NCBI GenBank assembly: GCA_018668255.1
Contig: JABISZ010000038.1
Coordinates: forward strand, 62,001-126,000
DNA from: Pseudomonadota bacterium
GTDB lineage: Bacteria; Pseudomonadota; Gammaproteobacteria; Ga0077536
DNA length: 64,000 nt
Direction of reading: 5' to 3'
The notes beneath the pieces were generated by a model. The model was not told the origin of the DNA and did not search any database. It saw nothing but the letters and a program-made list of their open reading frames with translations. Position 1 is the first letter of the stretch. Each line of letters starts with the position of its first letter. Positions 14,196 through 16,926 of this stretch are shown in pieces. Position numbers and translations under genes: made by a program.

Positions 14196-14846
14196 AGTAT
14201 TTATTTTTCCATTGTCTGCAATTAATAAAATGTCCGCTGGCCTCTGAGCAAATATTCCATTCGTCACTACTCCTGTAATTTGGTTAAGTTGGGTTTCTAA
14301 ATCTACAGGTGCACTTATTTTCATATTATGTATGTCCAAGATATAATTACCGTTGTCCGTTAGAAATTTTTCTCTCCATCTTGGGGTTCCTCCTAGTTTA
14401 GCGATTTCTCTCCCGACATAACTCCTGGCCATCGGGATAACTTCAATAGGAAGAGGAAAACTACCCAGTTGGCTAACTAGTTTCGTGTCGTCAGCGATAC
14501 AGACAAAGAGCTTGCTCGCCGCCGCCGTAATTTTCTCTCTTGTAAGTGCTCCACCTCCGCCCTTTATCAGATGCCTATGATTAGTTGCTTCGTCAGCGCC
14601 ATCTACATAGACATCTAATTGTGTGACAGAATCTAAAGGAATAATTGGGATACCTAGTTCTCGTAATTTTTTTTCTGTAGCATCAGAACTAGCGACGGCT
14701 CCTTGGATTCTTGATTTTATTTTACCTAATTCTGCTATAAAACAGTCTGCAGTACTGCCCGTTCCAACACCTACAAAAAAATCATCTTCTATATATGTGA
14801 TGGCTGCTTTTGCAACAGCTTCTTTCTTTTCAATTTGAGTAGTCAT
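14178..14846 (-). CDS. rpiA: Ribose-5-phosphate isomerase A
   Basis: Interconverts ribose 5-phosphate and ribulose 5-phosphate in the pentose phosphate pathway. Visible motifs are [14 protein letters not shown] (phosphate loop), [40 protein letters not shown] (with catalytic Asp and Glu) and [19 protein letters not shown]. At 222 aa it matches the family (E. coli 219). It is divergent from ilvA with 55 bases between the assigned starts, an arrangement common in Gammaproteobacteria. Confidence 0.97.
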
Positions 14847-14901
14847 GTCCGTTCCTGATAATAAAAAAATATTTGACCAAAGGAAATGTTATCTTATTAC
14901 G

Positions 14902-16419
14902 ATGAAAAACAACTATCCAGACTTGATTCGTAAAGCTCCAGTGTACGATGTTGCCACAAAGACCCCATTAGACTTTGCTCCTTTGATTTCTAAGCGCATG
15001 AGTTCTCAGATATGGTTTAAGCGAGAGGATTTACAGCCAGTTTTCTCGTACAAAATCAGGGGCGCTTATAATTTAATGTCATCGCTTTCGGATGAGGTGA
15101 TGCGTTCGGGAGTAGTGGCGGCTTCAGCTGGAAATCATGCACAAGGTGTTGCCTTATCAGCTAAAAAGCTTGGAGTGAAGGCAACTATTGTGATGCCTAA
15201 AACCACTCCAGAGATTAAAGTGGAAGCGGTTGTCCGTTTAGATGGGCGTGTGATCTTGCACGGGAATAGCTACGATGACGCTAGTGATTATGCTCAGAAA
15301 TTTGCGCTAGAAAAAAACATGCCTTACATCCCTCCGTATGATCATCCACTGGTTATTGCTGGACAAGGAACGGTTGGTTTAGAAATACTAGAACAGTTTA
15401 CAACCTTACCTGATGCTATTTTTGTGCCAGTGGGTGGGGGTGGTTTAATTAGCGGAGTTGCGGCTTATGTAAAATCGGTTGCGCCTACTGTTAAAATCAT
15501 AGGGGTCGAGCCTGCCGAAGCGGCTAGTATGACCGCTGCTTTATCCTCTGGGCAGAGAGCAACTCTCGATCATATTGGAATCTTTGCGGACGGTGCCGCG
15601 GTAAAGCAGGTTGGAGAGGAGAATTTCCGCATAGCCAAAGAGTATGTCGATGAAATGCTGACTGTCTCTATAGATGAAATGTGCGCTGCGGTTAAGGATA
15701 TTTTCGAAGAAACGAGATCCATAGCAGAGCCGGCGGGAGCCTTGGCTCTGGCCGGCGCAAAACAGTACATTATAAAACACCCTAATGTCATAACTAATTC
15801 TGTTGCCATATTGAGTGGGGCGAACGTCAATTTTGATAGGCTAAGGCACATAGCGGAATTAGCTGAGCTTGGCGAACAGCGTGAGATCTTAATTGGCGCG
15901 ACTCTACCTGAAGTGGCTGGAACCTTTAGAGATTTTTGTCATGCTCTCGGTCCGCGCCTTATTACAGAGTTTAATTATAGAATGTCGAACGAAAATACAG
16001 CGGCTGTTTTTGCTGGAGTGAAGGTTAAAAATAGAGATAAAGAGCGTGAGATTCTAATGGATAATCTTACTGATAAGGGTTATCTACCGATAGACATGAC
16101 CGATGATGAAGTTGCGAAAATCCACCTTCGTTTCATGGTTGGCGGCCGTAGTAGCGTTCCTATAGACGACGAGCGACTACTGAGGTTCGAGTTTCCTGAA
16201 AGAGCTGGGGCTTTGCTCCATTTCCTTTCACACTTAGGTGATAAATGGAATATAAGTTTATTTCACTATCGTAATCATGGTGCAGCATATGGGCGAGTTT
16301 TGATGGGGATCCAAGTCCCTGAGTCGGATTTTGCTGATTTTGAAAATACGCTTTCTAGTCTTGGATTCCCCTACGAAAATGAAACAATGAATCCGGCTTA
16401 TCATTTGTTTTTGAATTGA
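14902..16419 (+). CDS. ilvA: Threonine ammonia-lyase, biosynthetic
   Basis: PLP enzyme converting threonine to 2-oxobutanoate, the first step of isoleucine synthesis. The catalytic domain (about 1-325) holds the PLP lysine in SYKIRGAYN, the glycine loop VPVGGGGLISG and SAGNHAQGVA. Two C-terminal ACT-like regulatory domains (about 330-505) are present, as in the isoleucine-inhibited biosynthetic enzyme. The ATG at 14902 (505 aa) fits the family N-terminus; an ATG at 14845 would add 19 residues that overlap the rpiA start and are not family-like. No leader-peptide attenuator is seen upstream. Confidence 0.95.
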   Translation: MKNNYPDLIRKAPVYDVATKTPLDFAPLISKRMSSQIWFKREDLQPVFSYKIRGAYNLMSSLSDEVMRSGVVAASAGNHAQGVALSAKKLGVKATIVMPKTTPEIKVEAVVRLDGRVILHGNSYDDASDYAQKFALEKNMPYIPPYDHPLVIAGQGTVGLEILEQFTTLPDAIFVPVGGGGLISGVAAYVKSVAPTVKIIGVEPAEAASMTAALSSGQRATLDHIGIFADGAAVKQVGEENFRIAKEYVDEMLTVSIDEMCAAVKDIFEETRSIAEPAGALALAGAKQYIIKHPNVITNSVAILSGANVNFDRLRHIAELAELGEQREILIGATLPEVAGTFRDFCHALGPRLITEFNYRMSNENTAAVFAGVKVKNRDKEREILMDNLTDKGYLPIDMTDDEVAKIHLRFMVGGRSSVPIDDERLLRFEFPERAGALLHFLSHLGDKWNISLFHYRNHGAAYGRVLMGIQVPESDFADFENTLSSLGFPYENETMNPAYHLFLN

Positions 16420-16463: not shown

Positions 16464-16486
16464 CTTCATAAGCACTGTTGCTATAT

Positions 16487-16503
16487 AAGGAGGTTGGAAA
16501 ATT
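16487..16503 (+). promoter_or_regulatory. Strong Shine-Dalgarno placed for an ATT start
   Basis: AAGGAGGT (16487-16494) is a full-length match to the anti-Shine-Dalgarno. With a 6-base spacer it points exactly at ATT (16501-16503), which is in frame with the VOC protein. There is no in-frame ATG or TTG between it and the GTG at 16561, which is 66 bases away and itself inside the conserved fold. An in-frame TAA lies at 16486-16488, so the frame cannot begin earlier. Confidence 0.75.
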
Positions 16504-16926
16504 CAAGACGATCCGCTTAGTGAATTTACAAGTCGTCCTTATTTTAAGGCGTCTTTCCTCGTGTTCGATCTAAAAGCGACCCATGAATTTTATACAGAGA
16601 TTCTAGGGTGCCGTGTTGTCGTAGAGACGGACACTCTTTTAGAAATGGATTTCTTTGGAAATCGTATAGTTGCTAGACTTGCAAGCAGTAGACTTTCAAA
16701 ATCTGAGAGCCGTATTGGTCTGGGAGAAGAATCCTTTCCTGTGTTTGGATTGGTGATGAGTTGGAAGGATTGGCACAGGGCGGTTGATCACATGAATTAT
16801 ATCGGTGTTGATTTTAAAGTCGCCCCTTATACAACTAGCAAAGGCACCCAGGAAGAAAGTGCTATTTTTTGTCTTTACGACCCCTCTGATAATATATTAG
16901 AATTCAGGGCGTATAGAAACATCTAA
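16501..16926 (+). CDS. VOC/glyoxalase-fold protein, apparent ATT start
   Basis: A small beta-alpha-beta VOC-fold protein resembling the COG3565-type extradiol-dioxygenase-like family; substrate unknown. Read from ATT it is 141 aa, and the first 20 residues (including RPYFKASFLVFDL) restore the first beta strand of the fold, which would be lost with a start at the downstream GTG (16561). Conserved phrases are FYTEILGC, EMDFFGNRIVARL, SWKDWH and DPSDNILEFRAY. In homologues as I remember them the first-strand and mid-protein metal ligands are His (FHLAF, PHFG); here they are Lys16 and Val81, with only Glu134 kept, so metal catalysis may be lost. Its stop overlaps the trpC stop by 4 bases. Confidence 0.8.
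   Translation: MQDDPLSEFTSRPYFKASFLVFDLKATHEFYTEILGCRVVVETDTLLEMDFFGNRIVARLASSRLSKSESRIGLGEESFPVFGLVMSWKDWHRAVDHMNYIGVDFKVAPYTTSKGTQEESAIFCLYDPSDNILEFRAYRNI

What the first reader, a model, noticed from the sequence alone, without database searches (positions are those of the whole stretch)
16487..16560. A VOC-fold gene that appears to start at ATT
A full AAGGAGGT Shine-Dalgarno sits 6 bases before ATT (16501). The 20 codons from there to the first GTG encode the first beta strand of the VOC fold, and an in-frame stop (16486-16488) rules out any earlier start. ATT starts are known mainly for infC and pcnB, where they allow control by IF3, so an ATT start on an ordinary small enzyme-like gene is unusual. 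It could mark IF3-sensitive control or a recent ATG-to-ATT mutation.
Basis: partly seen in the sequence, partly recalled or inferred. Interest (0 to 1): 0.62.

Follow-up and report, generated by a model that had tools for sequence, protein, structure and literature searches.

The report
Bacterial gene starting at ATT codon
A small enzyme-like bacterial gene almost certainly begins at the very rare start codon ATT, held in place by an unusually strong ribosome-binding site and kept in three related species; ATT starts are known but rarely documented, and this one seems to be built from the leftover end of a gene that once stood in front of it.

Summary
TAAGGAGGT (16486-16494) lies 6 bases before ATT 16501. 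The in-frame TAA 16486-16488 blocks earlier starts, and the first in-frame ATG/GTG/TTG is GTG 16561. All three genomes of this clade keep both the Shine-Dalgarno (SD) and ATT, and in one of them (UBA4457) the downstream GTG is GTT. The 20 codons before GTG hold family-invariant residues (E8, F9, P13) and the first helix and strand of a VOC fold. The gene is under purifying selection (dN/dS 0.05-0.09 against the window). The SD is the strongest of about 57 ORFs in the window. SD+ATT pairs are not enriched genome-wide, whereas SD+ATG pairs are, so ATT starts are exceptional here. The start is neither a sequencing error nor very recent. Relatives outside the genus have ilvA, class II aldolase, then the VOC gene, whose ATG overlaps or closely follows the aldolase end. 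In this genus the aldolase is gone from that place, and the SD-ATT segment resembles its tail (position-anchored p about 0.001), so ATT was probably exapted from that relic. IF3-sensitive low expression is plausible but untested. ATT starts with strong SDs are known (S. aureus cvfC1): a new member of a known kind.

The parts
16486..16494 (+). Shine-Dalgarno TAAGGAGGT, 9 nt complementary to the usual 16S 3' end; its first three bases are the in-frame TAA stop
   Evidence: identical in G001 and G003
16501..16503 (+). ATT start codon of the VOC gene
   Evidence: only ATN or NTG codon in frame before codon 21; conserved in three genomes
16501..16926 (+). VOC-fold (Pfam Glyoxalase PF00903) gene, 141 aa, stop TAA 16924-16926
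   Evidence: (E 5.8e-07), AlphaFold mean pLDDT 84.7, best PDB match 3rri, dN/dS 0.05-0.09 against the window
16561..16563 (+). first in-frame canonical start (GTG, codon 21); rejected as the true start; GTT in UBA4457
16487..16509 (+). probable relic of the 3' end of a lost class II aldolase gene (AAG GAG GTT GGA AAA TTC AAG AC. = K E V G K F K T, compare K E V L E K F K T Y G in relatives); best-matching core 16499-16509
14845..16419 (+). upstream ilvA (threonine dehydratase), same strand, 81 bp before ATT; no terminator-like site found in between
   Evidence: identified by its sequence and by synteny with relatives

Best explanation
Shown: an intact, selected VOC-fold gene downstream of ilvA has ATT as the only plausible start codon, preceded by the strongest SD among the ORFs of the window, and this arrangement is kept in three species. 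Inferred: 30S subunits are docked by the 9-nt SD so that initiator fMet-tRNA is placed on AUU, giving a Met-first protein of 141 residues at reduced yield. Inferred, less certain: the start was created when the class II aldolase gene that stands between ilvA and the VOC gene in relatives was lost from this place. A stub of its last codons remained (K E V . . K F K T); its AAG GAG GTT became a full SD, and the ATT inside AAA|TTC took over when the old ATG was lost with the deleted bases. Like other AUU starts it is expected to be repressible by IF3, but no dedicated control has been shown.
For: ATT and TAAGGAGGT are identical in three genomes from independent assemblies, while the surrounding sequence differs. 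In UBA4457 codon 21 is GTT, leaving no canonical start before ATG codon 49. Family-invariant E8, F9, P13 and nearly invariant R12 lie before codon 21. A profile built without the three ATT genomes scores 173.8 bits for the ATT product and 151.0 for the GTG product. dN/dS is 0.087 (G001) and 0.051 (G003) against the window, with no amino-acid change in codons 2-20. The SD is the best of ~57 ORFs. SD+ATG is enriched in the own genome (123 against 64 reversed control) but SD+ATT is not (94 against 102), so this is a special case. All 27 other homologues examined have a nearby ATG, mostly overlapping or adjoining the aldolase end. The relic core scores as high at no other of 127,978 positions of the window, and position-anchored shuffles reach the observed score in 0-4 of 2000. 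Precedent: AUU with an extended SD, about 10% of AUG yield (PMC13009471).
Against: There is no expression, ribosome-profiling or peptide data. The anti-SD could not be read because no 16S 3' end was found in these assemblies. The relic match is short; without anchoring to position its gapped score is reached by 20 of 1000 shuffles, and the core segment was chosen after seeing it. A longer aldolase profile finds other alignments just as good. The three ATT genomes are close, so conservation of ATT over this divergence is not strong evidence by itself.
Confidence: 0.86

Rival explanations
1. Translation starts at GTG 16561 (codon 21), giving a 121-residue protein; the upstream open frame is chance.
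For: It is the first canonical start in frame, and automatic pipelines would probably choose it.
Against: GTT in UBA4457. A GTG start would lose the invariant E8, F9, P13 and beta-1. No strong SD stands at normal spacing before GTG. Profile score falls by 23 bits. A 9-nt SD would be left without a gene.
Confidence: 0.05
2. The gene is reached from upstream by recoding: +1 frameshift at AGG AGG T from a short ORF starting at ATG 16446, or readthrough of TAA 16486 from ATG 16459 (MLFISTVAI).
For: The ORF from ATG 16446 reads ...ATA AGG AGG TTG and a +1 shift would enter the VOC frame; the nine-codon ORF from ATG 16459 is in frame (sequence).
Against: UBA4457 has TGA inside the ATG 16446 ORF before AGG AGG. 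No clear SD stands before either ATG, the extra residues have no counterpart in homologues, and the strong SD at the right distance from ATT would be unexplained.
Confidence: 0.03
3. The start is ATT, but it arose by a single ATG-to-ATT change at the same position, tolerated or selected for low or IF3-tuned expression, and the likeness to an aldolase tail is chance. (This rivals the origin part of the best explanation only.)
For: A point change is the simplest path to ATT. AUG-to-AUU switches happen, though only 1 of 61,358 ancestral AUG starts in the survey of PMC5622118.
Against: The TT of ATT and its neighbours match the aldolase Lys-Phe-Lys-Thr codons, and the old ATG of relatives lies in the stretch missing here.
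Confidence: 0.35
4. Dead gene that has lost its start codon and is decaying.
For: The presumed metal-binding His residues of some relatives are replaced (K16, V81) in this clade.
Against: Frame intact in three species with dN/dS 0.05-0.09 against the window and a perfect SD retained; other intact homologues also vary at the metal sites.
Confidence: 0.03

Closest known systems
Staphylococcus cvfC1 (AUU start with strong extended SD; PMC13009471)
   Same: AUU start on a small non-infC gene, very strong SD, both conserved among relatives
   Different: Firmicute; first gene of its operon; shown by ribosome profiling and reporters; no relic origin mentioned in the passages read
Escherichia coli infC and pcnB (AUU starts; Butler 1987 and Binns 2002, cited in PMC1780047)
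   Same: AUU initiation in a gammaproteobacterium
   Different: Translation factor and poly(A) polymerase; in this genus infC appears to begin at ATA and pcnB at ATG
Streptomyces sigR (GTC start repressed by IF3; PMC5472188)
   Same: Non-canonical start on an ordinary gene with a strong SD, previously annotated at a nearby GTG
   Different: GTC instead of ATT; its role in control was demonstrated
VOC-fold protein 3rri (Alicyclobacillus, solved, function not assigned in its title)
   Same: Best sequence and fold match of the product (E 5.7e-07; TM 0.72; 26% identity)
   Different: Distant; says nothing about the start codon

Membership tests
Genes with an AUU start | AUU at the homology-supported start position with no usable canonical start | tested here: met
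Genes with an AUU start | Strong, well-spaced SD | tested here: met
   9 nt, 6-nt spacer
Genes with an AUU start | Start codon conserved among relatives | tested here: met
   three genomes of one clade; the sister clade of the genus uses ATG
Genes with an AUU start | Initiation shown by peptide, footprint or reporter | not testable with these tools
   no experimental data held
IF3-controlled genes | Expression rises when IF3 activity falls, and the effect is lost with AUG | not testable with these tools
   needs a reporter in an infC mutant
VOC / Glyoxalase superfamily (PF00903) | Pfam score above gathering cut-off and VOC fold | tested here: met
   30.4 against 20.6 bits; AlphaFold and Foldseek
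VOC metalloenzymes such as glyoxalase I or FosA | Metal-ligand His/His/Glu set | tested here: not met
   positions that are H, H, E in some relatives are K16, V81, E134 here; ligand roles inferred from position

The most novel reading that the evidence does not exclude
A start codon and its Shine-Dalgarno were exapted from the coding remnant of a deleted upstream gene: loss of an aldolase from an operon took the next gene's ATG with it, the remnant's Lys-Glu-Val codons became a perfect SD, and the ATT inside its Lys-Phe codons became the start, fixing an IF3-sensitive, low-yield state in one clade.
Probability: 0.4. Interest if true: 0.55.

Novelty: new member of a known kind. Interest (0 to 1): 0.42.

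Why it matters
Conserved AUU starts outside infC and pcnB are rarely documented, and most start-finding tools do not allow them; one sister genome here has no alternative canonical start before codon 49, so the gene would be truncated or missed. The six genomes of the genus give a natural comparison, with ATT in one clade and ATG in the other at the same locus, and suggest a concrete path by which a rare start codon can arise and be rescued by a strong SD.

Tried and rejected
A longer aldolase-tail profile gave competing alignments and did not extend the relic. RNA folding of the start region is no more stable than shuffles (z -0.3 to -0.7). No terminator-like or promoter-like site was found in the ilvA-VOC spacer. 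The 16S 3' end was not found in any of six genomes of the genus, so the anti-SD was not read. The pattern scan for SD+ATT shows no genome-wide excess. Frameshift and readthrough routes were considered and rejected (see rivals).

Full report
WHAT IS THERE. The window belongs to a 2.30-Mb, 106-contig genome that is gammaproteobacterial to judge by the titles of near-identical records. Between ilvA (ends 16419) and trpC (opposite strand, ends near 16923) lies a 141-codon frame on the + strand. It opens after TAA 16486-16488; the sequence TAAGGAGGT TGGAAA ATT puts a 9-nt SD six bases before ATT 16501. The only ATN or NTG codon in frame before GTG 16561 is that ATT. The product matches Pfam Glyoxalase, its AlphaFold model (mean pLDDT 84.7, 30-sequence alignment) has helix 5-11 and first strand 16-21, and the best solved match is the VOC-fold protein 3rri by sequence and by fold.

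IS ATT THE START. Six genomes of the genus are held. Three, the window, G001 and G003 (UBA4457), have the same TAAGGAGGT-TGGAAA-ATT although DNA around it varies. Codons 2-20 carry no amino-acid change among them; over the whole gene dN/dS is 0.087 (window-G001) and 0.051 (window-G003), and 0.164 for the close pair G001-G003, which differ at few sites. In G003 the downstream GTG is GTT, leaving ATG codon 49 as the next canonical start. Of the family alignment's invariant residues, E8, F9 and P13 fall before codon 21. A profile made without the three ATT genomes gives 173.8 bits to the ATT product, 151.0 to the GTG product and, for the first 20 residues alone, 11.1 bits. The homologues outside the clade have an ATG a short way before the same EF motif, so ATT sits where the family starts. 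A sequencing error is made very unlikely by three independent assemblies.

IS IT UNUSUAL HERE. Among ~57 ORFs of the window, the best anti-SD match at any canonical start is at most 7 nt; this site has 9. In the own genome AAGGAG-N6-9-ATG occurs 123 times against 64 for the reversed control, but AAGGAG-N6-9-ATT 94 against 102. ATT is therefore not a general start codon in this organism. infC of five members of the genus appears to begin at ATA after AGGAGGG or GGGAGGG, which fits the IF3 autocontrol known elsewhere, and pcnB begins at an ordinary ATG.

WHERE IT CAME FROM. Outside the genus the order is ilvA, class II aldolase, VOC in the case read in full, and the aldolase lies directly before the VOC gene in most relatives; its tail ...LEKFKTYG overlaps or adjoins the VOC gene, in many with the VOC ATG inside ACCTATGG. 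In the genus the aldolase is not at this place; homologues lie elsewhere, beside mtnP-, apt- and mtnA-like genes (gene names are my reading of the sequences). In the window another frame across the SD reads AAG GAG GTT GGA AAA TTC AAG ACG, K E V G K F K T, where relatives such as G020 have K E V L E K F K T Y G. The 11-base core AAATTCAAGAC scores as high at no other of 127,978 positions in the window. With the match anchored just before the VOC homology, 0-4 of 2000 dinucleotide shuffles reach the observed score for segment lengths 9-20. Unanchored, the gapped score is reached by 20 of 1000 shuffles, and a longer profile gives rival alignments. The sister clade with ATG shows no such match. 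I take the relic as probable, about 0.6, and the full exaptation story as about 0.4.

HOW IT PROBABLY WORKS. Inferred from established knowledge: the long SD-anti-SD helix holds the 30S subunit so that fMet-tRNA can sit on AUU; yield is lower than from AUG (about 10% in S. aureus reporters, PMC13009471) and IF3 disfavours it (PMC5472188). Compensation of weak starts by strong SDs is a known trend, and AUG-to-AUU switches are very rare, 1 of 61,358 ancestral AUG starts (PMC5622118). Whether low expression is useful or only tolerated is unknown.

COMPARISON. AUU starts are known: infC, pcnB, proposed lepA (PMC1780047), cvfC1 (PMC13009471). This is a further, well-supported member, on a kind of gene for which I found none described in the papers searched. 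Its 'recent mutation' idea is not supported, and its IF3 idea is open.

Noticed in passing
L067:1320-1340 (own genome, contig C15); also L042, L043, L046, L047: infC of this genus appears to start at ATA (AGGAGGG CTATGAT ATA GCT GCT), another non-canonical start, with an out-of-frame ATG-ATA-TAG overlapping it.
   Followed up: partly
L063 (own genome C43), L064, L065, L066: The class II aldolase that accompanies the VOC gene in relatives sits, in this genus, beside a gene resembling MTA phosphorylase, and in several genomes near adenine phosphoribosyltransferase and mtnA; this looks like a methylthioadenosine/deoxyadenosine salvage (DHAP-shunt-like) cluster.
   Followed up: partly
window:16546-16548 and 16741-16743 (residues K16 and V81): Positions that are His in several relatives (FHLAF and PHFGL), probably metal ligands, are Lys and Val in the ATT clade, so the product may not be a standard VOC metalloenzyme.
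   Followed up: partly
window:16499-16504 with 16522-16527: AAATTC around the ATT can pair with GAATTT in codons 8-9; in G001 and G003 the SD AAGGA can pair with TCCTT downstream. Overall folding is no better than shuffles.
   Followed up: partly
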